Source: Paenibacillus sp. YYML68
Lineage (GTDB): Bacteria > Bacillota > Bacilli > Paenibacillales > NBRC-103111
Direction of reading: 5' to 3'
NCBI RefSeq assembly: GCF_027923405.1
Contig: NZ_BQYI01000001.1
Coordinates: forward strand, 366,501 to 430,500
DNA length: 64,000 nt
Part shown: positions 3,001 through 43,082 of the stretch, piece by piece
Numbering within the stretch: position 1 is the stretch's first letter
Layout of the letters: each line of letters begins with the position of its first letter
The notes under the pieces: generated by a model
Told to the model about the DNA's origin: nothing
The model's input: the letters and a program-made list of their open reading frames with translations, nothing else
Database searches by the model: none
Made by a program: the position numbers and the translations under genes

Positions 3001-6000
3001 AAGTTGCATTACCAGTGGAGTCAACAGGCGACACCTTCTGATCCGAATTGGATCGAGGCTGTGCACGGAAGCAGCAAGACGCTCGCGGAAGGTGTCACAT
3101 CTCGTGTAGTCGTCAGCGGAGGCAAGCATCAGATTAAGCTTGCTGGAGCGGAAGGAAGCTGGTACTTGCACGTGAAGGCGCTGAACAGCGAAGGGGCACC
3201 GACGGTGAAGTCGAGCGAGCCGTATGTGCTTGATAATACGGCGCCGAAGGGCAAGGTGCGTTACAGTCCGGCTACCGCGACGGGCAGCTTAGTAACGGCG
3301 TATCTGGAGCTAGAAGAGGCAGCGACGGTCATCAGCCCTGAGAACGGGGCGTTGTTCCGCGTTTTTGATCAGAATGGGGAATACGAGTTCCGCTTCAAGG
3401 ATGCAGCAGGCAATATCGGGACCGTGAAGGCGGAGGTGACGTGGATTGATCCGTCGCTCAGCACGGCCCATATCAGCTTCTCCACCCGAGAGCTGACGAA
3501 TAAGCCAGTGCAGGTGACGATCAGCGTCACGGGTGAGCCTGAGCGCAGCATTGCGAGTGTGGACATTCCGGCTGATATGCAGCCGGTGCTGATCGACAGC
3601 AAGGCTGCAGCGAATGGCACGGTCACCTCGGTCGTCTACGAGGTAGGGGCGAACGGTATCTTCCACGTTAATATTAGCTATAGTGGCATAGACCGTATAG
3701 ACCGTATTCCAGTAACGGTCGATAACATCGATCGGGTCGTACCGACTGGCTATGTCACACTCGATAAGCAATCGTGGACGAATGGTCAAGTGATCGCGAC
3801 GTTGCATGCACAGGATAACGCCGGTGCTGTAACGGTGCTGAACAACGGAGGCCAGTGGACGCGTACATTTACGGATAACGGGCAATTCGAGTTCGAATTC
3901 CGCGATGCAGCAGGCAACACGGCCAAGGTGATCGCTACGGTGAGCAACATTGACCGTACAGCACCAGTAGGCACCGTGTCCTACAGCACGATGACGTGGA
4001 CGAAGGAGCAGGTGACCGCGACCTTGTCCGCAACGGATAATAGCGGCGCAGCCGTCGTCATCGTCAACAACAACGGTCAGGCTGACCGACTGTTCACGGA
4101 TAACGGCGAATATACGTACATGCTTCGCGACGCGGCGGGCAACACCGCAGAGGTGAAGGCGGTAGTGTCTCAGATCGACCGCGTCGCACCGACGGGAACG
4201 CTGAGCTACAGCGTCGACCCTAGCCAGACGACGAATCAAGCGGTCACGGTGACGATTACGCTCAGCGATGCTTCGAATACGGCTCGCGTTACGAATAACG
4301 ACGGAGCCTTGACGTACACGTTCGAGGACAACGGGGAGTTCGTGTTCCACATCGCCGATGAAGCGGGCAATACCGCGGAGGTGAAGGCGGTTGTGGCCAA
4401 TATGGACACCATCGCACCTCAAGCGGACGTTCAATATTCGGTCACATCTTGGACGATCGGTAACGTGACGGCATTGTTGAAGCCAAGCGAGCCGGTTCGC
4501 GTGCTGAACAATAACGGTTCATTGGAGTACGTGTTTACAGACAATGGAACGTTTGACTATGAGATTGAGGATGAAGCTGGCAACAAGGCGACGATTACGG
4601 CCAAGGTTGACTATATCGATCGGACGCCCCCTGCCGGTACGCTCGAGTACAGCACAACGGCTTGGACGAGCAGCAACGTGACGGTCACCCTGCAGCCGCA
4701 GGACAACAGCGGCGCATCAGTTACCGTTACGGGTGGGAAGCTGACGCATACATTCACCGATAACGGCGAGTATACGTTCACGCTGAAGGATGCCGCTGGC
4801 AATATCGGCACCGTGAAGGCTACGGTGAGCAACATTGACAAGACGGCGCCGACCGGTACCGTATCGTTAAGCACGACCAACAAGACGAATCAGGATGTAC
4901 TAGCGACGTTAACGGCGCAAGACAGTCAGAGCAAGGCGACGGTCGCGAACAATAATGGCAGCATGACGTATCTGTTCACGCAGAACGGTCAGTTTACGTT
5001 CGAGCTCGTCGATGAAGCGGGGAATAAGACGCTCGTACCAGTGACCGTCAGCAACATCGACAAGACCGCGCCTACCGCACAGCTGGTCTATTCGGAGAAG
5101 GGATGGACGAAGGGCAACGTACAAGTAACGGTGAAGCCGAGCGAGCCTGTGACCATCGTCAATAATAATGGCTCCGATACGTATACCTTCACGGACAATG
5201 GCAGCTTCCAGTTCGAGCTAATCGATCAGGCAGGCAACAAGGCGGTCATTACTGCCGAAGTGTCGAACATCGACCGTACGGCGCCCACGGCTGAAGTGCT
5301 GCACAGCGTCCAAGGCTGGACGAACGGCGATGTGACCGCAACCGTCGTACCATCGGACAACAGCGGAGCGCCTGTCATCATCGTCAGCAACAATGGCAAG
5401 AGCGATTATGTGTTCCGCCAGAACGGCGAATTTGATTTCGTGCTGCGGGATGCAGCGGGCAATACGGCGACGGTGAAGGTAACGGCTGCCAATATCGATA
5501 AGACGCCGCCAACTGGCAAGCTGGTGTACAGCGCCGACGTGCGGAAGAAGACGAATCAGGATGTGACCGCAACGGTAACAGCCAGCGATACACAGTCGAA
5601 GGTGCATATCGCGAACAACGACGGCAAGCCGACCTATACGTTCACGGCGAACGGAGAGTTCAAGTTCGAGCTGGTCGATGAAGCCGGCAACGTCGGCTAT
5701 GCCACAGCGGTTGTAGCCAATATCGATAAGGAAAAGCCGACGGCTACGGTCGAATATTCCAAGCTCGGCCCGGCTCCGACGAACAAGGACGTCATTGTGA
5801 CGCTGAAGAATGCATCTGAGCGCATCTACGTGACGAACAACGAGCAGAAGACGAGCTATACGTTCACGACGAACGGACAGTTCGCCTTCCAGATCGTCGA
5901 TGATGCGGGCAATACCGCGGTCATCGAAGCGAAGGTCGATTATATCGACAAGGTCGCACCAGTCGGAACGGTCACCTATAGCACGACCGAGCCTACGCGC

Positions 6001-31333: not shown

Positions 31334-34300
31334 TTAACGCCTCAAGCGTGGAAGCAGCAGGCTGCCTTGCGGCAGCACCCGCATAATGCCCCATACGCCG
31401 AGCTCGACGTCCCATTGCAGGTTCGCAGAGCGATACATATAGTCACCGGCTGTCCCATACAGTCCCCCTGCGCCGAACGTGAGGAAGAAGCTATCGTGGT
31501 CGCCGACCGTAATCTGCCCCTTCTCCGCGATGAAGGTGGAGTTAATATCTGCTGCGCTACGTAGCCACGTGTGGCCGTGCAAGGTGAAGCTGTGCGCTCT
31601 TGCCCGATCAGCGGGGAATATATGACGGATCACAACCCGATCGCCTTCATGAGCGAGGAAAACGGGGGTCGCTGGGTCGCCATGCACCGTAGAACTGAAC
31701 ACCTTGGCGACATCGGGATCGCGCTTCAGCCGATGGATGAACCGCTCAGCCCGATAGTTGAACGCACGGGAGCCTTGATCCTCGAAGTCCTCTGGCTCTT
31801 GCTCCTCTTCAAGCTCGAATATAGGGTTCGGATCGATGATGAGATTGCCCTCCTGATCGACGAGCCGGATCCCGTCGTGCATCACGAGCACGAACTCCCG
31901 GAATTCTCCGAGCAACGGGTTGGAGATAATGACCTGACTGCCTCCGACTACAGGACGCCGCGTGTACGGGTCCAGATAGACGGACCCCTTAGGCTCTGTG
32001 ATGAGTACTCCGAAGGCGCCGTGATGGCGATGGTGGCGCAGGTCGGCCATGTCCCATAGATTACATGCGCCGACGTCCTGATCGATGTACCAGCGATACG
32101 TGATGCTCTCCCCAGGGGCAATCGTCTGATCCGGGTTGAAGCCGACTGTTGCGCCATCCGAGCTCCGCACATCATAGGCGATGAGCTGAGGGTGAAGGGA
32201 GATGCGCAGAGACGGAGTGAACGGTATCTCGACCGGCACCTCGGGATAGCCTTGCCGCTCATCGGCATGCACGGAATCCGTCAGTCGGTTATGGAGTGTG
32301 ATCTCTACGACATCTCCGACGTTCGCACGTAGAATGAGCGGCTCCGGGTTCAGCAGGCCGACACGGATCGCCCACTCATCGCGTGCCTGCGCGAATACGA
32401 TGCCGAACGGGTCGTGATCGCCGGCCTTGTTGTAGACGATCTTCGTCTGCAGCGCCACGACCTCGTACCGACGTATCGGCGCCTCTGGCGGACCCGGCAT
32501 GGTGGCCCCAGCGGCAGGCGGCGGCAGCTTGCGCTTATGTCGGTCTGCCTGCTTCACTCGTTTGCGCGGCGGACGCTTGCGGTCGGGCAGCGGCTTCAGC
32601 TGTGGAGTCATGGCCTTGAAGCTGCGGATGATGCCCCAGTTGCCGAGCCATATATCATCGAGCGAGCCGTAGTGGTACAGCGTGTCGAAGTCTCCGTCGC
32701 CTTCCATAGCGAATTCCAGTGTGAAATGCTCGGATATGCCGATATGCTGCTGCTGGACGAGCTGGGAATCGAGGTCGCGCCGCTCCTGCCGCCAGCGCTG
32801 CCGGTGCAGATTGAACGAATGCGATTCCTCGTGCGCGCCTTGGAACAGCCGGACCCGGACTGGATCACCGTTATAGGTGTGGAACAACGGCGTGACCGGG
32901 TCGCCGTGCAGGAAGGAGCTGAATACGTATGCCGGATCATCCTTCGGTCCTCGCAGGCGGAACTGCAGCGGCTCGTTCCGGTAATTGACACCGATCACAC
33001 CGGGATCCTCCATGGAGCCGGGGAACGGCGGCTGATTAAGCGGCATCCCCTTCGCATCGTACAGCATGGCGAAATCGTGCACGAATAGCGAGAATTCACG
33101 GAAATCCGGGATGAGCGGATTGACGATCGTCGCCTCGACTCCCGACCTCAGCGGTTGTCCAGTGCGGGAATCTAGGAATCGCGAGCCGCGCGGCTCAACA
33201 TTCAGGCCGCCGAACAGGCCGTGATTCTGATGCGAGTTGGCGAACAAGTGATCGTGGAAGAACGTGCCGCGCAGCTCCACGTCGGCGAACCACACATACC
33301 GGATCGTCTCCCCTGGCAATATGCTGGAGTCATAGTTCCAGCCTACATTGGCACCATCGGAGGATAGCGGATCGAACTTGACGAAGTGGACGTGTATGGA
33401 CGCTTCATAGGTTCGGATGACGAGCTGGAACGCATTCCCGCCCAGCGTCTCCGGAAGCTTGTTCGTGAAGGTGATATGAATGCAGTCGCCGGCATTCGCC
33501 CGCAGGACGAGCGGCTCGGGCTGCTTGCGACCGCTGCGAACGTCCTCCTCGTCCTCAGCCAGCACATACAGCCGCCCCTCTGGGTCGTACCAGCCGTGAT
33601 CGTTGTAGCAGATCGGCATCTGGATCGCAACGAGATGGAACTCGCGCACAGGCGGATCTCCATTCACGCAAGGGTTGACGAATGCAGCTCCGGGTTCGGC
33701 ATCTGGCGAGAATTGGTTCCGCTCCAGCGGCGTCGCCTCGCGTCCGCCGACGATGCCGAGCGGCGGGCGCGGCGCCTTCTTGCCGAATATGCCGGGGATG
33801 AAGTTCGGGAAGCCGGGCTTCTCCTTCGTCGGCTTCGGCGGTCTCGGTCGATCAGGCAGCGGCTGCAGCTTCTTGATCGGGACTCCGTTCGGATATCGCT
33901 GCTTTCCGTTCTGCAGCGTGTTGAAGATACGGTGCATGCCCCACATGCCGTCCATGAAGTGCGGGTACAAGTGACAGTGGACGATGACATCCCCGAACGC
34001 CTCCTGCAAGCTCCCAGCCCCGTACAGGGGCGAGACGGTGTAGAAGTTTTGCGGGCCGATCGCCTGTGAATCGATAATCTCTGAATCTTGATCCTCCGTC
34101 TCGAACAGCCACTGGTGGACGTGGTAGTGGAACACATGCGTCTCCTTCACGCCACCGTGAATGAGACGGATCTTCACCGGGTCACCGACATAGGAGCGCA
34201 GCACAGGGGTCGCGGGATCGCCGAACACCCACGAGTCATGGTGCACCTCCTCGCCGTCGGTGCCCATTCCGACGACCCCCTCCATAATGAGCCGCATCCG

Positions 34301-34984
34301 GTTGCCCATCGGCTCGCTGCGGTAGTTGACCTGTGTCGACATCGCAGGCTGCAGCGTCATCGGATCGATAGGCGTTTCGCCGAGAATGTTCTTCGTCTCC
34401 ATCTCATCGTGGAAGAACCACGCGAACTCCCGGAAGGAGGGGAGGAGCGGATGGTGGACGTCGGCATACAGCCCGCTGCGCAGCGGCTCCCCGGTAACGG
34501 GATCGGTCCACGACGAGCCCTTCGGCTGCACGATAAGGGCGCCGAACAGCCCGTTCAGGTTGGAGCCGAGCTCGCCTGACAGCGGATTCCCGAGATCGGT
34601 GAAGATATGCATCCCTTCCCGAATGACGTACCAGCGGTATAGGCGCTGCTCGCCTGAAGGGAGCGGAGGCGCTGTCGAATCGGCATTGAAGCCGACGAAC
34701 GCTCCGTCTGAAGTCTCGACCTCATACTCGGCTCGCTGAATATGTATCGATGTGGCGAAGGGCAGCTTATTCTCGAACGTCACCTCGATCTCATCGCCTA
34801 CGTTCGCTCGAATGACGAGCGGCTGCACGAGGTCGACCGGCATGAACGGCTGCTCGGCGACTTCTCGGCATACCTCCTCCTCGTGCTCCTTCAGCACGAA
34901 CATCATGCCGTCCGGGTTATGGTCGCCGAAGTTATTCAGCACAATCCGTATCGGTATGGCAACAATGTGAAATTGCCGTATCAC
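31334..34984 (-). CDS. mnxG: MnxG-like giant multicopper oxidase, putative spore Mn(II) oxidase
   Basis: A 1,216-residue protein with a GTG start after AAGGGGG. It is built from about six cupredoxin domains, ceruloplasmin-like. Copper-ligand motifs are HYHVHQW (about 283), HCHLYPHFMDGMWGM (about 335, with the type-1 copper ligands), HDHLFANSHQNHG (about 574) and HSFTLHGHTW (about 1130). The length and the N-terminus (IVAIPIRIV-N-GDH-PDGMMFVLKE) closely resemble MnxG, the manganese oxidase on spores of marine Bacillus SG-1, about 1,217 residues. No signal peptide is present, as expected for a mother-cell coat protein. Two small genes lie directly upstream in the positions of mnxE and mnxF. Alternatively it oxidises another metal or a phenol. 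Confidence 0.8.
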   Translation of the reverse strand: MIRQFHIVAIPIRIVLNNFGDHNPDGMMFVLKEHEEEVCREVAEQPFMPVDLVQPLVIRANVGDEIEVTFENKLPFATSIHIQRAEYEVETSDGAFVGFNADSTAPPLPSGEQRLYRWYVIREGMHIFTDLGNPLSGELGSNLNGLFGALIVQPKGSSWTDPVTGEPLRSGLYADVHHPLLPSFREFAWFFHDEMETKNILGETPIDPMTLQPAMSTQVNYRSEPMGNRMRLIMEGVVGMGTDGEEVHHDSWVFGDPATPVLRSYVGDPVKIRLIHGGVKETHVFHYHVHQWLFETEDQDSEIIDSQAIGPQNFYTVSPLYGAGSLQEAFGDVIVHCHLYPHFMDGMWGMHRIFNTLQNGKQRYPNGVPIKKLQPLPDRPRPPKPTKEKPGFPNFIPGIFGKKAPRPPLGIVGGREATPLERNQFSPDAEPGAAFVNPCVNGDPPVREFHLVAIQMPICYNDHGWYDPEGRLYVLAEDEEDVRSGRKQPEPLVLRANAGDCIHITFTNKLPETLGGNAFQLVIRTYEASIHVHFVKFDPLSSDGANVGWNYDSSILPGETIRYVWFADVELRGTFFHDHLFANSHQNHGLFGGLNVEPRGSRFLDSRTGQPLRSGVEATIVNPLIPDFREFSLFVHDFAMLYDAKGMPLNQPPFPGSMEDPGVIGVNYRNEPLQFRLRGPKDDPAYVFSSFLHGDPVTPLFHTYNGDPVRVRLFQGAHEESHSFNLHRQRWRQERRDLDSQLVQQQHIGISEHFTLEFAMEGDGDFDTLYHYGSLDDIWLGNWGIIRSFKAMTPQLKPLPDRKRPPRKRVKQADRHKRKLPPPAAGATMPGPPEAPIRRYEVVALQTKIVYNKAGDHDPFGIVFAQARDEWAIRVGLLNPEPLILRANVGDVVEITLHNRLTDSVHADERQGYPEVPVEIPFTPSLRISLHPQLIAYDVRSSDGATVGFNPDQTIAPGESITYRWYIDQDVGACNLWDMADLRHHRHHGAFGVLITEPKGSVYLDPYTRRPVVGGSQVIISNPLLGEFREFVLVMHDGIRLVDQEGNLIIDPNPIFELEEEQEPEDFEDQGSRAFNYRAERFIHRLKRDPDVAKVFSSTVHGDPATPVFLAHEGDRVVIRHIFPADRARAHSFTLHGHTWLRSAADINSTFIAEKGQITVGDHDSFFLTFGAGGLYGTAGDYMYRSANLQWDVELGVWGIMRVLPQGSLLLPRLRR

Positions 34985-34996
34985 CGTTATTCCCCC

Positions 34997-35305
34997 TTAG
35001 TCGCGCTCAGGCTTCTCTTGAATGTCGGGAATGAGCGGCTTGCCTTCTTCTTCAATATAGAACGTCTCGATGCTCTCGACATGAATACGAATCGTCTTGC
35101 CCTCCATCTCCGTAACATGTGTCGTCTCGATCTGAATCAGCACGAAGTCGCTGAGCGTACCCTTAATTTCGCCTATAACGAGGAAAGGGAACGGCCCGGT
35201 CATCACGAGAACCCGACTGCCGATGCTGCGATGGAATACTTGCACGAGGTCGTTCTGTCGGATCGCGTTGATGAAGGCGAGCTCGCGGTCCTTGCTCTTA
35301 GACAT
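34997..35305 (-). CDS. small MnxF/MnxE-like protein upstream of the oxidase
   Basis: A 102-residue protein starting at the ATG at 35305 (GGAGGTGA 8 bases upstream) rather than the GTG at 35323. The body is beta-rich (VLVMTGPFPFLVIGEIKGTL, then FVLIQIETTHVTEMEGKTIRIHV) and looks LSm/DUF2642-like; the tail is charged. It ends 12 bp before the oxidase start. In the SG-1 mnx operon two small proteins, MnxE and MnxF, precede MnxG and form a ring-like subcomplex with it. Size, order and spacing fit, but assignment rests on context. Confidence 0.6.
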   Translation of the reverse strand: MSKSKDRELAFINAIRQNDLVQVFHRSIGSRVLVMTGPFPFLVIGEIKGTLSDFVLIQIETTHVTEMEGKTIRIHVESIETFYIEEEGKPLIPDIQEKPERD

Positions 35306-35332
35306 TGGAACATTCACCTCCACTGGTATACA

Positions 35333-35659
35333 CTAAGGAATTGGGAACCTCGTATCGGCGTCGAACGGCAGGAAGCTGGTAATGCGCTCGATCGGGAAGT
35401 TCAGCGGCGTCGGGAACCGGAAGAAGGGCGCGTTGCTCATTTTGATCGTAACGGGGCTGAGCTGTACGTAGCTGTCTGTCACCTCACGAACCGTACCCGT
35501 GAAGATCGGACGGAACGTCTGTCCGAGGAGGTTCAGCTGGCTCGCGCTCATCGTGAGCATAATTTCTTTGCCGAGCAGATCGCGGAATAGCGGGTCTCGG
35601 GTCGTGATCTTGACCAGTCTGTGTCTGCGGGTGGACGGTTTTTTATTTTTTCTCTCCAT
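35333..35659 (-). CDS. small MnxE-like protein, first gene of the oxidase operon
   Basis: A 108-residue protein with AAAGGAGGACC before the ATG. A basic N-terminus (MERKNKKPSTRRHRL) is followed by a beta-rich domain with IMLTMSASQLNLLGQTFRP and FTGTVREVTDSYVQLSPV, the pattern of LSm/DUF2642-like sporulation proteins. It lies 27 bp upstream of the next small gene on the same strand, so the operon order is small-small-oxidase-basic protein. The two small proteins look distantly related to each other. Predicted partner of the oxidase; not shown. Confidence 0.6.
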   Translation of the reverse strand: MERKNKKPSTRRHRLVKITTRDPLFRDLLGKEIMLTMSASQLNLLGQTFRPIFTGTVREVTDSYVQLSPVTIKMSNAPFFRFPTPLNFPIERITSFLPFDADTRFPIP

Positions 35660-35801
35660 AGCGGGGTCCTCCTTTCATCGCGGTTGCACCGTGCGGGAAG
35701 CCTTCCAGATTATGTTTATTGATGTGGAAATGGGATTATACGTTGTCCGTATGTTGAATGCGACAATGGGACAATAGAGAGAGCGCGAACAGGGGGAGCT
35801 T

Positions 35802-36416
35802 ATGATTAAAAAAATAGGCATGATCGTTGTATACGTTGTTGCATCTTACTTCATCTTCAAGCACGGCGACGTGCTGCTTGGCTGGCTGCAGCAATCGGAC
35901 CGTCTGCTCCTCGTAGCGCTGTTCGCGACGCTGCTGGCGCTGTTCCCGATTATTCCGTATCCGGTCGTCGGGAGCGTCATCGGGGCGGCCTTCGGCCCCA
36001 TGCTGGGCGGGCTGCTGACGTGGGTCGGCTCAGCCGCGGCGTCTGTACTGATGTTCCTGTTCGTACGCTACGGCTATCAGGACTGGGGGCGCAGACTGCT
36101 GCAACGGTATCATCGTCTTGATCGCGTGACCGCTTGGTTCGAGCGTAATGCGTTCCTTGCGATCGTCTTCAGCCGACTGCTTCCGTTCATTCCTTCGATT
36201 ATTATTAATGTATACGCCGCCTTGAGCCGAGTGTCCTGGCTGACCTACACCATAGCCTCCTCCTTGGGCAAAATACCCGCGATGCTGCTGTTCGCCTTCG
36301 TCGGCGACTCGGTCGTGACGGAGCCGCGGCAGCTGCTCGTTGTCATCGCCGTGTATGGTGTGTTCCTCGCTGTGCTGCTGCTTGGGTATAGGCTGTGGAC
36401 CAGGAGCCGCACATAG
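35802..36416 (+). CDS. VTT/TVP38-family membrane protein
   Basis: A 204-residue polytopic membrane protein. The family core is visible: a glycine-rich re-entrant segment (PVVGSVIGAAFGPMLGG, about 50-66) and FSRLLPFIPSIIINVYAALSRVSW (about 126-149), which match the SNARE-associated/VTT domain of TVP38 and DedA relatives. Such proteins are linked to lipid scrambling or membrane homeostasis. GGGGGAG precedes the ATG. It is divergent from the mnx-like operon. Confidence 0.85.
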   Translation: MIKKIGMIVVYVVASYFIFKHGDVLLGWLQQSDRLLLVALFATLLALFPIIPYPVVGSVIGAAFGPMLGGLLTWVGSAAASVLMFLFVRYGYQDWGRRLLQRYHRLDRVTAWFERNAFLAIVFSRLLPFIPSIIINVYAALSRVSWLTYTIASSLGKIPAMLLFAFVGDSVVTEPRQLLVVIAVYGVFLAVLLLGYRLWTRSRT

Positions 36417-36546
36417 CGGCCTGCTGCGGGGAGCGGGTGGCACTGCATTTGGCCGGTGCGGTATAATCGGGAGAAGAGCTTGAATTCCGAAGGAGACACC
36501 GCGTACGGGTGATATTAGATCTGTCAGATCGAAGGAGGGAGCCACG

Positions 36547-37254
36547 ATGCAGCTGAATGAGGTCATGCAGGAGCTGGAGGCGCTCGGGAGCGAGCAGACG
36601 AAGCGTACGTATGTGCGTCACGGAGCGCCAGAGCCATTGTTCGGAGTCAAGGTCGGGGATATGAAGAAGCTGACGAAGCATGTGAAGAAGAACCAGCAGC
36701 TCGCGCTCGATCTATACAGGACGGGTAACTCGGATGCGAAATATTTGGCTGGACTGTCTGTTAACCCGAGGAGCATGACGAAGGAGCAGCTGATCGCATG
36801 GGCACAAGAGGCGAACTGGTATATGCTCAGTGAGTACACGGTCGCTCAAGTGACAGCGGAGAGTCCCTATGCACTGGAGCTTGCTCGGGAGTGGATCGAC
36901 GCGGAAGATGAGCTGCTCGAGTCGTGCGGCTGGAGCACGTATGCGAATTACGTCTCGATCACGGCGGACGAGGAATTGCCGCTGGACGAGCTTAGAGGCT
37001 TGCTGAAGCGGGTCGAGGAGACGATCCATGCACAGAAGAACCGGGTTCGCTACACGATGAATGGCTTCGTCATCGCAGTCGGCTGCTACGTGCAGCCGCT
37101 GCATGAGGAGGCGGTGCATACAGCCGGGCAGCTTGGGAAGGTCAATGTGAACATGGGAGATACGGCGTGTAAGGTGCCCGAGGCTCCTGGGTACATTCAG
37201 AAGGTTGCCGAGCGGGGATCGATCGGTCAGAAGCGGAAGACCTGCATATGCTAG
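36547..37254 (+). CDS. AlkD-like DNA alkylation repair protein
   Basis: A 235-residue all-helical protein of the DNA_alkylation (HEAT-like) family related to AlkC/AlkD glycosylases. Family features include the N-terminal RTYVRHGAPEPLFGVKVGDMKKL and the VNMGDTACKVPEAPGYI segment. These proteins remove or bind alkylated bases. This short form is common in Bacillales and its exact substrate is often untested. AAGGAGGGA precedes the ATG. cysK starts 33 bp downstream, possibly co-transcribed. Confidence 0.85.
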   Translation: MQLNEVMQELEALGSEQTKRTYVRHGAPEPLFGVKVGDMKKLTKHVKKNQQLALDLYRTGNSDAKYLAGLSVNPRSMTKEQLIAWAQEANWYMLSEYTVAQVTAESPYALELAREWIDAEDELLESCGWSTYANYVSITADEELPLDELRGLLKRVEETIHAQKNRVRYTMNGFVIAVGCYVQPLHEEAVHTAGQLGKVNVNMGDTACKVPEAPGYIQKVAERGSIGQKRKTCIC

Positions 37255-37287
37255 GCGACGAACAGACGAAGTGAGGAGAAGCGATCG

Positions 37288-38208
37288 ATGGGTATCTACA
37301 CGAATATCTCACAGCTGATCGGCAATACCCCGGCGGTACGGCTGCAGCGCATCGTGCCACAAGGGGCCGCGGACGTCTATGTGAAGCTGGAGCGGTTCAA
37401 TCCTTCCGGCAGCGTGAAGGACCGGGCCGCGTATAGCCTCATTACGACAGCTGAGCAGCAAGGGCTGCTGCTGCCTGGCGGCACGATCATCGAGCCGACG
37501 AGCGGCAACACGGGCATCGGCCTTGCGATGATCGCCGCAGCGAAGGGTTATAAGGCGATACTGGTCATGCCAGACAACATGTCCAAGGAACGGATCAATC
37601 TGTTGAAGGCGTACGGCGCACAGGTCGTCCTGACACCGAGCAGCGAGCGCATGCCGGGCGCCATTCGTAAGGCGCTGGAGCTGCAGCAGCAGCACCCCTG
37701 CAGCTTCATCCCACAGCAGTTCGAGAACAAGGCGAATCCCGACATTCACCGGAGCACGACCGCGCTGGAAATTATGGAGCAGATGGACGGCCGACTCGAT
37801 GCGTTCGTGGCGACGGCGGGCACTGGCGGCACCATAACGGGCACCGGTGAGACGCTGCGGGCACAGCTGCCCGAGCTGCACATCGCCGTCGTCGAGCCGA
37901 AGGGCTCACCAGTGCTGTCCGGCGGCAGCCCCGGTCCGCACAAGCTCGTCGGGACGAGCCCTGGCTTCATCCCAGCCATCTTGAACACGGGCGTATACGA
38001 CGAGATTATTCAGATTGCCGATGAGGACGCGATCGAGACGATGCTGCAGCTCGCCCGCTTAGAGGGGCTGCTGCTCGGACCATCGTCAGGCGCATCCGTG
38101 TTCGCCGCGATGACCGTGGCGAAGCGGCTCGGCACGGGCAAACGCGTGCTGTGTATCGCGCCAGATACGGGGGAGCGGTATTTGAGTATGAATTTGTTTG
38201 GGGAGTGA
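37288..38208 (+). CDS. cysK: cysteine synthase (O-acetylserine sulfhydrylase)
   Basis: A 306-residue PLP enzyme making cysteine from O-acetylserine and sulfide. The PLP lysine is Lys44 in SGSVKDRAA. The substrate loop TSGNTGIGLA (about 71-80) and phosphate-binding glycine loop GTGGTITGTG (about 178-187) are intact. Length is normal. GAGGAG precedes the ATG and a strong hairpin follows. Confidence 0.96.
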   Translation: MGIYTNISQLIGNTPAVRLQRIVPQGAADVYVKLERFNPSGSVKDRAAYSLITTAEQQGLLLPGGTIIEPTSGNTGIGLAMIAAAKGYKAILVMPDNMSKERINLLKAYGAQVVLTPSSERMPGAIRKALELQQQHPCSFIPQQFENKANPDIHRSTTALEIMEQMDGRLDAFVATAGTGGTITGTGETLRAQLPELHIAVVEPKGSPVLSGGSPGPHKLVGTSPGFIPAILNTGVYDEIIQIADEDAIETMLQLARLEGLLLGPSSGASVFAAMTVAKRLGTGKRVLCIAPDTGERYLSMNLFGE

Positions 38209-38231
38209 GCGTGGGTTGGGGCAGCGTGAAT

Positions 38232-38272
38232 AAGCAAGGGTTCCACTGGTGATGGCAGTGGAGCCCTTGCTT
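38232..38272 (+). terminator. strong terminator after cysK
   Basis: Nearly perfect 17-bp arms at 38232-38248 and 38256-38272 with a 7-base loop, followed by GTTTA. It also marks the left edge of the AT-rich island. Confidence 0.75.
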
Positions 38273-38318
38273 GTTTAGGTGTTTGGTGTGTGGGCATGTG
38301 GGGTTGGTTGAGTGAGTT

Positions 38319-38340
38319 TGACAGCGTAGCCAAGCTGCCC
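38319..38340. repeat. left copy of a 22-bp exact direct repeat around the Septu island
   Basis: These 22 bases (starting TGACAGCGTAGCC and ending GCTGCCC) recur identically and in the same orientation at 40956-40977. The pair brackets 2.6 kb holding ptuAB and an IS4 relic. Confidence 0.85.
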
Positions 38341-38363
38341 CCAGGCGTTTTGAGTAATTAGGA

Positions 38364-39071
38364 TCATATAACTCCATTTGGTCTTGGTATAAGCGTACAG
38401 TTTGTATCATAGCAACTAATACTAGTTCCGACAAATGCACTGATAAATCTTGTCATCATATTAACATCATCTTTAAACACATTCATCCAAATTGAAAAGA
38501 AACCAGTAGATGTTGCAGTTTCCACAATCTGCTCTCTCATTTGAATTGTATCTGAATCCCTCAATCTTGTCTTTGCACGTTCTGCCTTATCATAAGCAGT
38601 TCTACGTTCTCTCCATCTACGGTCTGTAGCCTCTGGATTAATTAATGGGTCCAAACTTGGAACTCGATCAAGACCAGTCAACTTTATAGTATTTATGGCT
38701 ACCTGCCTTTGATGAGCATTAAGTGTTTGGGACGGTGAAATAATCGCTCCTACTGAATATTCAAATGCCATTGCAGTATTATCATTATCAGGCCAGAAAT
38801 AGTTGCTTAAAGTAATCTGCTTATTTGTTTTTATTGAATTACAATTGACACAAGCAAGAAGGAAATTGTCCCATGAAAGTGTTAAGCCTGGTACTAAAGA
38901 TTTTGGCTGTATATGTTCGACAGCTGTATCCCCACCAAGAGCCCTTTCACAATAAGAACAATAAGCTCCTATTCTTTCAATCAAATGACCTCTTGCTTCT
39001 TGGTACTTTGTAAACTGTATGGGGAGACCATTTGCATCATTAGGAGTTGAACCTCTTTCTATTGGTCTCAT
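38364..39071 (-). CDS. ptuB: Septu PtuB-like HNH nuclease
   Basis: A 235-residue HNH-family protein. The zinc/HNH motif is complete: Cys38-x2-Cys41 (CSYC), His53 in AVEHIQPKS, then WDNFLLACVNCN with Cys74 and Cys77. The rest is helical. Its start overlaps the stop of the AAA ATPase gene by 4 bp, the gene order of Septu anti-phage systems (ATPase then HNH nuclease). It is predicted to cut nucleic acid when the ATPase senses infection. Base composition is clearly AT-richer than the flanking chromosome, consistent with acquisition. Confidence 0.85.
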   Translation of the reverse strand: MRPIERGSTPNDANGLPIQFTKYQEARGHLIERIGAYCSYCERALGGDTAVEHIQPKSLVPGLTLSWDNFLLACVNCNSIKTNKQITLSNYFWPDNDNTAMAFEYSVGAIISPSQTLNAHQRQVAINTIKLTGLDRVPSLDPLINPEATDRRWRERRTAYDKAERAKTRLRDSDTIQMREQIVETATSTGFFSIWMNVFKDDVNMMTRFISAFVGTSISCYDTNCTLIPRPNGVI

Positions 39072-40405
39072 TCACCATTTCTCCCCAATCCAGCTGCTAA
39101 TCTTTCCATCTCTAAAAATGCGTAATATGCCACATCTGAACTGTATAGGGACTCCAGTTCATCCAATTTACGCTTTAACTCTTCAATTTCTTTACCTGTA
39201 GCGCCCTTTCCTTTTTCTAATAACGAATAATATACTTGGGCAACCTTATACATTTCGTTCAGTTTGTCACTACGTTGAACACCGTCTATTCCCATAGCGC
39301 TCTCTGAAATATCCTCGATACTTTTGTTAACAAATTTTTCACTTATAACTTCTTCATCATCATCTACTTCTTGAAGACGACGAAGTTCTCCCTCTTCAAG
39401 GGACTGAACTATAAATGGCGAATGGGATGTTACAATAAATTGTATTCTTGGAAAAGTTCTTTTTAAGTCATTAACAATAGTACGTTGCCATTTCGGATGA
39501 AGGTGGAGGTCAAGCTCATCAATAAGTACAACACCAGGAGTTTCACTTAGAGCATTAGCTTCAAGTCCCGGATTTAATTGAGCCATTCTATGTGCTATAT
39601 CGGCGATCATCCCAATCATGTTACGAACACCGTCGCTTAACATACGAAAAGGTAATATTGTACCATCTTCCCTAATTGCTCGGATTTCTTCAGAATCAAC
39701 GTCAAATTCTATAGTCTTCCAATTTTTCATACAAACACTTATTGCATTACGTACAGCCTCCAAAATTGGTAGTTCTTGTTTTCTTTGTTTTTTTTGCAGT
39801 TCGATATAGGTCATCTTCTCCATCCATCGAGTGAAATGTTTTTCACTCGATGCAGGGTCTAAGCAAAATGAATAGCCACCTAAACGATCGGTCCTTATTT
39901 TAAAATCATTGCGTTCCCTTTTTTGAACCCACAGCCTTCCAGTTCCATAGTATGATATAAGCGGTAATACAACAGGGTCACCTCGGCTGACCTTTTTTTG
40001 CAAAGAATTAGCGTAATCCATGATTGATTTTGCTTCTTTACTAGTAGTTGTACCATGTTTTCCGTTTAATGCTCTTGACCAAGTTTTCAACTCTCCCTCA
40101 ACAGTCCCACAACAAGAGATTTTTACAGGATACTGTAATTGTATATCCGATAAACCACCCTGAATAAAAGTTTTTCTATGAACTTCATCTTTTCTAATAT
40201 GTCTAGAATGCACTCCATCGAATCCACTAAGTAAAGACCCTAAAGCAATTGCTAATCCATCCAGAACAGCTGTCTTTCCAGTACCGTTATCACCAATCAG
40301 CACTGTAAATTGGTTAGAAAATGTTATTTCTCTTTTTTCAAAACCATGGAAATTCTCCATTTTCAATTCGTGAATAATCAATCTGATCATCCTCCGTGAT
40401 AGCAT
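39068..40405 (-). CDS. ptuA: Septu PtuA-like SMC/AAA-family ATPase
   Basis: A 445-residue ATPase. Walker A is GDNGTGKT at 38-45; a signature-like LSDGVRNMIGM region, Walker B in VVLIDELDLHLHP (about 290-300) and the following TSHSPFIVQSL are typical of OLD/RecF-like AAA_15/21 ATPases. A coiled C-terminal region (about 400-440) follows. No good ribosome site precedes the first ATG; GGAGG lies 9 bases before a TTG at 40381 (residue 9), which may be the true start. It partners the HNH nuclease 4 bp away. AT-rich. Confidence 0.85.
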   Translation of the reverse strand: MLSRRMIRLIIHELKMENFHGFEKREITFSNQFTVLIGDNGTGKTAVLDGLAIALGSLLSGFDGVHSRHIRKDEVHRKTFIQGGLSDIQLQYPVKISCCGTVEGELKTWSRALNGKHGTTTSKEAKSIMDYANSLQKKVSRGDPVVLPLISYYGTGRLWVQKRERNDFKIRTDRLGGYSFCLDPASSEKHFTRWMEKMTYIELQKKQRKQELPILEAVRNAISVCMKNWKTIEFDVDSEEIRAIREDGTILPFRMLSDGVRNMIGMIADIAHRMAQLNPGLEANALSETPGVVLIDELDLHLHPKWQRTIVNDLKRTFPRIQFIVTSHSPFIVQSLEEGELRRLQEVDDDEEVISEKFVNKSIEDISESAMGIDGVQRSDKLNEMYKVAQVYYSLLEKGKGATGKEIEELKRKLDELESLYSSDVAYYAFLEMERLAAGLGRNGE

Positions 40406-40655
40406 GACTAAATAATAATTTATTCCCTGTTTCCCTCACTTTTAGCCCATGGATACACTCTTTATTTATTAATTTATCTAATTATATCACTAGCGTTGCA
40501 TAAACGAATCTTCAATTTGCCTAGAAAAATATCGGAATTTTACCACAATGAAAAATGCACAAAAATGTTAAATTCAGTGCGTGTAGAGACATAAAAAAAT
40601 CCTTAAGATAAGGGAACAGGTAGTCCTGTCCAAATCCCTATCAAAAGGAACGACC
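40406..40655. other. AT-rich non-coding stretch upstream of ptuA
   Basis: About 250 bp, very AT-rich, presumably holding the ptuA promoter on the minus strand and the left part of the inserted IS4-like sequence. No clear gene or hairpin was found. Confidence 0.4.
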
Positions 40656-40958
40656 ATGGACAAGGATAACATAAAATCCGCTTTCAGGGAATACCTCATT
40701 CCTCTGAACACTGACATTTTGCTCAAGCAAGTGGCAACGTTGAAATCGGATCGATCCGTTAAAAAGTTAGATACCGAGAAGACCTGCAAGCTCTTCATCT
40801 ACGCTCAGCTGATGTAGTTAAAATCTCGCGAGGATATCGGTCTCCATCTGCAAAATAAGAAGGCTCTACAGCATACCGTACAGTTGGAATCTATAAGCTC
40901 GTCGCAGCTCTCGCGTAAGTTTCGGGAGCTTGATTCCTCAATTTTCGATGAGGTGTGA
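40656..40958 (+). pseudogene. IS4-family transposase N-terminal relic
   Basis: In the frame starting at the ATG at 40656 the product begins MDKDNIKSAFREYLIPLNTD and continues with SDRSVKKLDTEKT and LESISSSQLSRKFREL, the N-terminal pattern of IS4-type transposases common in Paenibacillaceae. An in-frame TAG at 40815-40817 breaks it, and homology stops at the TGA at 40956, exactly where the right 22-bp repeat begins. The catalytic DDE part is missing, so it is inactive. Confidence 0.75.
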
Positions 40959-40977
40959 CAGCGTAGCCAAGCTGCCC
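40956..40977. repeat. right copy of the 22-bp exact direct repeat
   Basis: Identical to 38319-38340. Sequence after the repeat differs (CCAGG at the left, ACTGG at the right), so the identity is bounded at 22 bp. Confidence 0.85.
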
Positions 40978-41121
40978 ACTGGAACTCTATGCGTATCGCG
41001 TTGTCTCCGTTCGGATGTTTTGTCTGTTAAACTCTATTTTAACCGAGAACAGCCTCTAAATCTTTTGGTCATGGTAGTATGATATAACAAATAGGAAATA
41101 CCCATTAGCGAGGTGTTATAT

Positions 41122-41364
41122 ATGCAATGGCAAGAGGTTCGAAGCATTTACCCCAGTCAGTACGTACTGCTTGAAATATTAAATTCTCATACAGAAGATA
41201 GTGTTCAATACGTTGACGAGGTCGCTTTAATCAGAGCGATCCAAGATCCTGATGAAGCAACCAAAGAACTGGTGAAGTGCAAAGATAACAACATCGTTTA
41301 TCACACCGGTCAAGAAAAGATAGCCATTGAATTAAGAAAAAATCCGTTCTACAGAAGCCGGTAA
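41122..41364 (+). CDS. small conserved-looking hypothetical protein
   Basis: An 80-residue soluble protein, start ATG 41122 after GAGGTG. It opens MQWQEVRSIYPSQYVLLEIL and contains YVDEVALIRAIQDPDEATKEL. Small proteins of this type often lie directly upstream of retropepsin-like (clan AA) aspartic protease genes in Bacillales; here only a short protease-like tail follows at 41366. It may be an orphaned partner. Function unknown. Confidence 0.65.
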   Translation: MQWQEVRSIYPSQYVLLEILNSHTEDSVQYVDEVALIRAIQDPDEATKELVKCKDNNIVYHTGQEKIAIELRKNPFYRSR

Positions 41365-41365
41365 G

Positions 41366-41449
41366 ATGCTGATCGATTTAGTCGACAGTAACGGCCTAAT
41401 CGGATTAGACCTTCTTATAACCAGTATGATGATCATCGACCTTCATTAA
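41366..41449 (+). pseudogene. C-terminal remnant of a clan AA aspartic protease-like gene
   Basis: A 27-codon frame directly after the previous gene reads MLIDLVDSNGLIGLDLLI then IIDLH and stop. The GLIGLDxLI and IIDL elements match the C-terminal part of retropepsin-like bacterial proteases; the catalytic DTG region is absent. Probably left by an internal deletion. Confidence 0.4.
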
Positions 41450-41523
41450 ATGAAAATGTATCCAACAGACTCCAAACAGCATCAAAATAGAGACGCGAAA
41501 ACCTTCGCGTCCCCATCGCACCC

Positions 41524-42192
41524 TCATCCCCCCCGCACCAGCCGCGGCTCCAGCTCATCCGCTTCCTTCCCGCTCACAACATAGCTCGTAATCGACTGCT
41601 CCGCATCGATCTCAAGGCACAGGTCTGTCGAGTGACAGCCGTTGCCCATGCTTTGCTCATTCGGACAGGCCGAGATCGCGATGAACAGGTCCATCTCCGC
41701 GCGCAGCACGACATAGTCGCCGGCCTTCGACTTCGGGCGCTTGAACTCTACGCTGCCGTCCTCGTGGAGCACCGTGTTCATGAAGATGTTGAACGGGTAA
41801 TGCTGTCCAGGCTTCTCGATGCCGAATTTGGCCAGCGCCGCGGACAGATTCATATAGCAATTCTCATAAGGAATATCCTTCTCATACAGCAGCTTATACA
41901 TCTCCGGTCGGCAGGCGGGGGAGAGAAGGTCGTGCTTCTCTACCGTGTCCTCAACGAGTGTCAGCATCGGTACATATTTATTCGAATAGATCACTTGTCC
42001 CTTGCGAATCTGAGTCGTCTCGAGTGCGTCTCGTGTCGCGATCGGGTCCAGTCTCTCCTCGGTATCTTGCACGTTATAAGCGACGAAGTCGCCGATCTGC
42101 TCACCCTCGACATCAATGAGGCGCAGCAGATTGCCCTTATACACACGGGCGCTGAAGCCATGCTTGGCAGGAATGGTGAATGTTTGCTTCAT
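41524..42192 (-). CDS. DUF1989 (urea carboxylase-associated) family protein
   Basis: A 222-residue protein. The start ATG at 42192 has GGGAG upstream; the longer frame to 42285 is unlikely. Family features are the N-terminal beta segment (IPAKHGFSARVYKGNLLRLIDVEGEQIGDF, shown in part), the central NCYMNLSAAL, and cysteines and histidine in ACPNEQ...NGCHSTDL. DUF1989 proteins accompany urea carboxylase or amino-acid metabolism and are thought to bind metal. Here it stands alone, so the pathway is unknown. Confidence 0.85.
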   Translation of the reverse strand: MKQTFTIPAKHGFSARVYKGNLLRLIDVEGEQIGDFVAYNVQDTEERLDPIATRDALETTQIRKGQVIYSNKYVPMLTLVEDTVEKHDLLSPACRPEMYKLLYEKDIPYENCYMNLSAALAKFGIEKPGQHYPFNIFMNTVLHEDGSVEFKRPKSKAGDYVVLRAEMDLFIAISACPNEQSMGNGCHSTDLCLEIDAEQSITSYVVSGKEADELEPRLVRGG

Positions 42193-42371
42193 CAGGCAGC
42201 TCCCTTCTAGGTATAACCTTGAACAGAATGCGCAGCCTGATATAGGTTGCCCGCCGCCAACCTTACCCATACGCCGAATGGTCAAAAACGCGTGGATGAA
42301 AAAGCACCATCTGATTCATCCTAATACGCGGCACCACCAAACTATGAAGCGAAAAGAGGGAATTCAAAACG

Positions 42372-43082
42372 ATGCATAACCAAATGCAAAACCAGATGCA
42401 CCACCAGGCGCACAACCCGATGATGTCCAACCAATTTCCAGTCCAAGCCTTCCAAGGTCAAGGGAACGCCATGATGAACTCCAACCAGCTGCCAAGCCAA
42501 ATGAACCACGGCGGTCATGAGGTGTTCGACCTGCACGAAGTTATCGCGGGTATGATCAACGTACTGGATCAGTACATGATGTTCCGCATGTTCGTTCGCG
42601 ACCCGGAGCTGATGGACATTCTGGATCGCCAGTACAGCTTCATCCTTGATCAATACAACCTGACGTGCGAATGCTTCACGACAGGTCGTGAGCCGTCCCA
42701 GCACACGAAGCGTTATATGATGAAGCAGAACAACACGGTCGTATACGGCATGAAGCCGTCCCAGCCGAAGAAGCCGAACCAGTCCATCGAGGACATCAAG
42801 GATAAGGGCCTCTCCGGTCATATGCTCGGCTTGATCAAGTCGACAGCGTCCTTGCTGACGATGACGTCGGTAGAAGTGACGAATCCGGTCATTCGCCGCG
42901 TGCTGGCCGACAGCGTGCCGAACTACGTCGAGATGGCGTACGAGATCTTCTTGTACCAGAACAAGCACAGCTACTACCAAGTGCCGCAGCTGAGCGCGCA
43001 TGACATGAACCTGATGACCAATAGCTATGTACCGATGAACGGTCAGCCGCAGATGCCGAATCCGGGCATGTTCCGCAACTAA
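42372..43082 (+). CDS. CotF-like spore coat protein
   Basis: A 236-residue protein. The first 50 residues are rich in Met, Asn, Gln and His (MHNQMQNQMHHQAHNP) and low in complexity. The rest is helical and matches the coat-F type domain: VIAGMINVLDQYMMFRMFVRDPELMDILDRQ (shown in part) and later IRRVLADSVPNYVEMAYE. Such proteins are ferritin-like coat components made in the mother cell. It shares a terminator with the convergent YqcI-type gene. Confidence 0.85.
   Translation: MHNQMQNQMHHQAHNPMMSNQFPVQAFQGQGNAMMNSNQLPSQMNHGGHEVFDLHEVIAGMINVLDQYMMFRMFVRDPELMDILDRQYSFILDQYNLTCECFTTGREPSQHTKRYMMKQNNTVVYGMKPSQPKKPNQSIEDIKDKGLSGHMLGLIKSTASLLTMTSVEVTNPVIRRVLADSVPNYVEMAYEIFLYQNKHSYYQVPQLSAHDMNLMTNSYVPMNGQPQMPNPGMFRN

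What the first reader, a model, noticed from the sequence alone, without database searches (positions are those of the whole stretch)
38319..40977. Septu defence cassette bracketed by an exact 22-bp direct repeat
ptuA and ptuB form an AT-rich block in GC-rich chromosome, directly after the cysK terminator. The same 22 bases occur in the same orientation at 38319-38340 and 40956-40977, with divergent sequence on both outer sides. This could be a target duplication, att-like site or recombination scar that lets the cassette move or be lost as a unit of about 2.6 kb.
Basis: partly seen in the sequence, partly recalled or inferred. Interest (0 to 1): 0.66.

Follow-up and report, generated by a model that had tools for sequence, protein, structure and literature searches.

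The report
Septu defence cassette inside transposon relic
A two-gene anti-phage system was inserted into the remains of an old transposon gene, and the 22-base repeat on either side is most likely a duplicated piece of that transposon gene made during the insertion, not a docking site that the system carries with it.

Summary
The 22-mer is exact at 38319-38340 and 40956-40977, is the longest exact direct repeat in the window, and has no other exact copy in the 5.09-Mb genome. It brackets an AT-rich PtuA1/PtuB1 (Septu) pair under purifying selection. The 22-mer is a piece of an IS256-family transposase gene on the - strand. The sequence outside both copies is IS256 too: the outer flanks, joined through one copy, match an IS256 relic elsewhere in this genome at 51 of 60 bases; the inner flanks match at chance level. 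On the right the insert ends in a truncated IS4-family transposase whose homology stops at the base before the repeat. Best reading: about 2.6 kb (Septu plus a broken IS4 end) was inserted into a decayed IS256 copy with a 22-27-bp target duplication, probably by break repair; Ku and a nearby ligase are present. An att-like site is not supported: related cassettes lack the repeat, the unit has no recombinase, and its ends are not transposon ends. No empty site was found; no other strains of the species are held. It resembles the 'insertion with long target duplication' reported for restriction-modification genes. Modest interest.

The parts
38229..38275 (+). hairpin after cysK (probable terminator)
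   Evidence: inverted repeat arms 38229-38248 / 38256-38275, 90%; not listed by the simple terminator scan
38311..38345 (-). left IS256-family transposase fragment, codes GAAWLRCQTH
   Evidence: 35 bp, 88.6% to the IS256 relic around G000:C1:307199; peptide GAAWLRCQTH matches intact IS256 transposases at residues about 245-257
38319..38340 (.). left copy of the 22-bp direct repeat (target duplication)
38341..40955 (.). inferred insert of 2615 bp: Septu genes plus 5' part of an IS4-family element
   Evidence: inner flanks do not match IS256 above chance, outer flanks do
38364..39071 (-). ptuB, HNH protein, 235 aa
   Evidence: PADLOC PtuB1 7.9e-83; PF01844 HNH 4.4e-9; 77% aa identity and dN 0.14 / dS 1.40 to the P. 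plantiphilus homologue
39068..40405 (-). ptuA, AAA ATPase, 445 aa
   Evidence: PADLOC PtuA1 4.1e-154; PF13175/PF13304; 84% aa identity, dN 0.089 / dS 0.94 to the P. plantiphilus homologue
40486..40504 (.). end sequence of an IS4-family element, similar to both ends of the genome's own IS4 copies
   Evidence: 18 of 19 bases to own IS4 copies, found on both sides of the transposase gene there in opposite orientation
40593..40668 (+). IS4-family leader, repeated in the genome at 78-81% identity
   Evidence: 18 further places in the own genome
40656..40955 (+). first 100 codons of an IS4-family transposase, stop at codon 54, truncated exactly at the repeat
   Evidence: blastp 45% over 103 aa, 2e-25, to the A. 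dauci IS4 transposase; 39% over 100 aa to the own IS4
40956..40977 (.). right copy of the 22-bp direct repeat (target duplication)
40956..41045 (-). right IS256-family transposase relic: middle segment (to 41003) fused by an internal deletion to the 5' end (41005-41045)
   Evidence: 86% over 51 bp and 85% over 41 bp to the IS256 relic, with about 360 bp missing between
41113..41364 (+). neighbouring PDC-M08A-like ORF, part of the same accretion zone, not of the insert
   Evidence: PADLOC 3.6e-26; 91% DNA identity to a contig of another species

Best explanation
An ancestral IS256-family insertion sequence lay on the - strand between cysK and the DUF1989 gene and had already decayed. A DNA fragment of about 2.6 kb (intact ptuB-ptuA plus the first part of a broken IS4-family element) was then inserted in the middle of its transposase gene. 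At the insertion point 22 bp (up to 27 bp, allowing two later mutations) were duplicated, giving the direct repeat. The insert's ends are arbitrary (about 23 bp past the ptuB stop codon on one side, codon 100 of an IS4 transposase on the other), so the likely mechanism is capture of a DNA fragment at a staggered double-strand break: fill-in of the overhangs makes the duplication and Ku/ligase end joining seals it. Shown: the repeat, the IS256 identity of repeat and outer flanks, the IS4 truncation at the repeat, full-length and constrained Septu genes, presence of Ku and a nearby ligase gene. Inferred: a single event, the stagger and fill-in, the order of decay. The Septu pair itself most likely works as other PtuAB do, as an ATPase-nuclease that cleaves tRNA on infection; this is carried over from published E. 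coli systems and was not tested here.
For: The third site of the motif lies inside a Transposase_mut gene (PF00872, 4.5e-41). The left 35 bp match it at 88.6% and the right 51+41 bp at 85-86%. Outer flanks joined through the repeat match IS256 at 51/60, inner flanks at 32/60; the 38 outer flank bases match at 32, against a maximum of 24 in 100,000 random draws, the inner at 13 (P 0.13); the 8 bases outside the left copy match 8/8, found at 1 of 63,800 window positions. IS4 homology runs to codon 100 = 40953-40955. Both copies share the change Q to L before R-C, while 7 of 8 compared IS256 copies have Q, one H, none L, so both come from one copy. Cassette homology to P. plantiphilus covers 38347-40433 only, with no flanking exact repeat of 12 bp or more there or in Paenibacillus sp. 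P96. Ku and an ATP-dependent ligase within 1 kb of it.
Against: No empty site and no second strain seen. Only 8-9 bp of IS256 sequence remain outside the left copy; the 3' half of the element is missing there and needs a further deletion. The left inner flank matches IS256 at 4 of its first 5 bases, so the duplication may be 27 bp with two mutations, or the left piece may be an independent fragment. A 22-nt stagger is long for simple break repair (general knowledge). The mechanism of joining cannot be read from the sequence.
Confidence: 0.72

Rival explanations
1. Two separate IS256 copies in the same orientation bracketed Septu, as a composite transposon or through recombination between a chromosomal and an incoming IS256, and both have since decayed to short pieces.
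For: Both copies are IS256 transposase fragments in one orientation; similarity beyond the 22-mer (27 of 30) includes 4 of the first 5 bases on the left inner side.
Against: Beyond those few bases neither inner flank matches IS256 (13 of 38, P 0.13), IS4 sequence runs up to the repeat, and two independently eroded copies would have to keep the same 22-30 bp of a transposase gene of about 1.2 kb.
Confidence: 0.12
2. The left 30-35 bp is templated filler: during repair at the cysK side a short stretch of an IS256 copy was copied into the junction.
For: The left IS256 piece is very short (35 bp) and is bounded by non-IS256 sequence on both sides.
Against: It needs a second choice of template that happens to end where the right relic is broken; the left copy carries 8 IS256 bases beyond the right copy's edge, so it cannot have been copied from the right relic in its present form.
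Confidence: 0.1
3. An att-like site: a recombinase acting in trans integrates or excises the cassette at a 22-bp core.
For: Exact 22-bp direct repeat around a horizontally acquired defence cassette.
Against: No recombinase in the insert; the core is coding sequence of an IS256 transposase; homologous cassettes lack it; no exact copy in viral contigs or in 103 other family genomes.
Confidence: 0.04
4. Chance repeat with no history.
For: None beyond its shortness.
Against: Longest exact repeat in the window, 15 bp maximum in 1,712 controls, and common IS256 identity.
Confidence: 0.01

Closest known systems
Insertion with long target duplication of restriction-modification genes (Nobusato et al. 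2000; Furuta et al. 2010), seen here only as cited in PMC3031569, PMC1643837 and PMC3154945
   Same: A compact defence gene pair without its own transposase sits between direct repeats that duplicate the target; length variable.
   Different: Here the defence genes are Septu, the target is a dead IS256 gene, the insert carries a broken IS4 end, and no empty allele has been seen.
Type I Septu (PtuA1/PtuB1)
   Same: Gene order, full-length ATPase and HNH proteins, PADLOC families.
   Different: Nothing unusual; 80% DNA identity to P. plantiphilus.
IS256-family (Mutator) insertion sequence
   Same: Both repeat copies are pieces of its transposase gene.
   Different: Only fragments; not an active element.
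Composite transposon flanked by IS copies in direct orientation
   Same: IS256 sequence on both sides in one orientation.
   Different: Inner flanks are not IS256, and no complete IS on either side.

Membership tests
Type I Septu | PtuA1 AAA ATPase of the PADLOC family | tested here: met
   PDLC00278 4.1e-154 over residues 10-439
Type I Septu | Adjacent PtuB1 HNH protein | tested here: met
   PDLC00315 7.9e-83; PF01844 above cut-off
Type I Septu | Phage defence / tRNA cleavage activity | not testable with these tools
   Only literature on E. coli systems
Retron Ec78-type PtuAB effector | NCBIfam PtuA/PtuB equivalogs above cut-off | tested here: not met
   NF041760 233 bits against 500, NF041761 49 against 150
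Insertion with target duplication | Direct repeat flanks the insert | tested here: met
Insertion with target duplication | Outer flanks join into one continuous target sequence, inner flanks do not | tested here: met
   51/60 against 32/60
Insertion with target duplication | Empty allele with one copy of the repeat | tested here: inconclusive
   None in 392 order genomes; no other strains of the species held
Integrative element with att sites | Site-specific recombinase within the unit | tested here: not met
   ORFs of 80 aa or more overlapping 38341-40955 are ptuA, ptuB and one 144-aa ORF (38006-38440) that overlaps cysK on the other strand
Integrative element with att sites | Same att core at the ends of related cassettes | tested here: not met
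   No exact flanking repeat of 12 bp or more within 1 kb in L041 or L042
Composite transposon (IS256-flanked) | IS copies extend inward from both ends | tested here: not met
   Inner flanks 13/38, P 0.13

The most novel reading that the evidence does not exclude
Small non-restriction defence cassettes such as Septu, which carry no recombinase, spread by capture of bare DNA fragments at staggered breaks, leaving 20-30-bp target duplications, with IS relics as frequent landing places. This locus would be a worked example of the restriction-modification pattern in a different class of defence system.
Probability: 0.2. Interest if true: 0.5.

Novelty: new member of a known kind. Interest (0 to 1): 0.33.

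Why it matters
How small defence cassettes without their own recombinase move is poorly known. A cassette whose insertion target can be read directly, because it is a recognisable transposase gene, gives base-level junctions and lets a target duplication be told apart from an att site. It is one locus and does not show a general route.

Tried and rejected
Att-like site: rejected because the 22-mer is transposase coding sequence and related cassettes lack it. Transposition by the IS4 element: rejected because only one IS4 end is present and the repeat abuts an internal codon. Dispersed repeat: rejected, two exact copies in the genome. Synteny for an empty site: in 20 of the 24 other genus genomes the stretch around cysK (14 kb, one of 10 kb) was fetched; of 13 window genes only cysK itself was found there, in all 20, so no comparable site exists. 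The DUF1989 neighbour occurs in 1 of 24 other genomes. Intact DNA copy of this IS256 subfamily: none in 103 other family genomes at 1e-30; the own genome has two further partial relics that do not cover the 22-mer. The other IS256 loci of the genus gave no usable match to the motif (only L003 was credible among 31 loci plus L037 scanned; the other regular-expression hits were dropped as chance). Viral contigs: no 22-mer, no IS256 relative. Phages: no DNA match to the region; three distant PtuA matches at 32-39%. Plasmids: no PtuA at 1e-60. Literature: (Septu terms) listed no paper on such a repeat by title or abstract; full texts were not read for it. One search (break-repair terms) gave nothing I used; one search found no paper naming PDC-M08.

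A frame error of mine gave a meaningless IS4 comparison; one search replaces it. In one search the right and joined peptides were translated out of frame and gave no hits; the right-hand reading NAIRIEFQWAAWLRC comes.

Full report
Observation. The 22-mer is exact at both places, is the longest exact direct repeat in the window, and exceeds every one of 1,712 control placements, whose maximum was 15 bp (placements within 35000-42500 were left out). The own genome of 5.09 Mb has exactly two exact copies and a third site with three mismatches. Among 104 family genomes, the own one included, only one other (G051, one site with 2 mismatches) has it within 2 mismatches, and none of the 24 other genus members.

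The cassette. ptuB and ptuA are PtuB1 and PtuA1. They do not reach the cut-offs of the retron Ec78 effector models. Close homologues were found in Paenibacillus plantiphilus (84% for PtuA) and Paenibacillus sp. P96 (79%). Among 392 genomes of the order, 3 (own included) matched PtuA at 1e-60, one of them at 79% (probably the P96 genome, since its alignment to the window is identical to that of P96) and one at 40%. dN is 0.089 and dS 0.94 for ptuA, 0.136 and 1.40 for ptuB against P. plantiphilus, so the pair is under purifying selection. DNA homology with P. plantiphilus covers 38347-40433: the conserved unit starts just inside the left repeat but ends about 520 bp short of the right one.

What the repeat is. 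The third site (G000:C1:307225) lies inside a Transposase_mut (IS256-family) gene. The left piece 38311-38345 matches it at 88.6%; the right piece 40953-41003 matches at 86% and 41005-41045 at 85%, with about 360 bp missing between. In the coding frame the left reads GAAWLRCQTH and the right NAIRIEFQWAAWLRC, against NAIRKEFQGAAWQRCQTH in the relic. I fetched 7 of the 20 plasmid records with relatives; with the relic that makes 8 copies, of which 7 have Q before RC and one H, none L. The two window copies share L and two silent differences from the relic, so they most likely descend from one copy.

How it arose. The outer flanks joined through one 22-mer match IS256 at 51 of 60 bases, the inner flanks at 32 of 60; counting flanks only, 32 of 38 against a maximum of 24 in 100,000 random draws, and 13 of 38 for the inner (P 0.13). 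On the right, similarity to IS4-family transposases runs to codon 100, which ends at 40955, one base before the repeat; this IS4 piece begins with an end-like sequence at 40486-40504 and a leader similar to 18 other places in the genome. The simplest history is one insertion of 38341-40955 into an IS256 relic with a 22-bp target duplication (27 bp if CCAGG/ACTGG are mutated ends). The ends of the insert are not transposon ends, so I favour capture of a DNA fragment at a staggered break. A Ku gene and an ATP-dependent ligase within 1 kb of it are present, which makes this possible but does not show it.

Results against this reading. The 3' half of the IS256 element is absent on the left beyond 8-9 bases. 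The left inner flank matches IS256 at 4 of its first 5 bases. No empty site was found among 392 genomes of the order, and cysK neighbourhoods in 20 of 24 other genus genomes share no other tested gene with the window. The genome collections hold one genome per species.

Known counterparts. Passages of PMC3031569, PMC1643837 and PMC3154945 say that restriction-modification systems insert with long target duplications, citing Nobusato 2000 and Furuta 2010; neither of those was read (the second is not held). I read the abstract and outline of PMC13096335 and PMC11555353 and one section of the former for tRNA cleavage by Septu and by retron PtuAB. The searches listed no report of this pattern for Septu in titles or abstracts; that is not proof of absence.

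Neighbourhood. To the right of the IS256 relic lies a PDC-M08A-like ORF whose partner gene is broken by a 278-bp deletion compared with an intact pair in another genus member. The gap between cysK and the DUF1989 gene is therefore an accretion zone of mobile and defence-related fragments.

Noticed in passing
window 41113-41470: PDC-M08A-like ORF (PADLOC 3.6e-26), 91% DNA identity to G016 although cysK is only about 73% identical there; its aspartic-protease-like partner (intact in L035:3692-4084, TIGR02281 below cut-off) has lost 278 bp in the window.
   Followed up: partly
L036 (G016:C114) 3128-3276: A second copy of the end of the protease-like partner gene in the same G016 genome, 79% to window 41385-41531.
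   Followed up: no
window 3934-3954 and 4819-4839; 2837-2855 and 4565-4583: Two other exact direct repeats, 21 and 19 bp, in the first 5 kb of the window.
   Followed up: no
L042 7260-7490: ptuB of Paenibacillus sp. P96 appears to change frame near its start, a possible pseudogene or sequencing error.
   Followed up: no
L041 1-10000: In P. plantiphilus the Septu pair lies beside a helicase-like gene, a PAPS-reductase-like gene and XRE-like regulators (names recalled from sequence, not tested), with an IS4-like transposase ORF just downstream.
   Followed up: no
window 31334-34984: A 1216-aa ORF with repeated HxH-type motifs that looks like a multi-part multicopper oxidase (recalled, not tested).
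   Followed up: no
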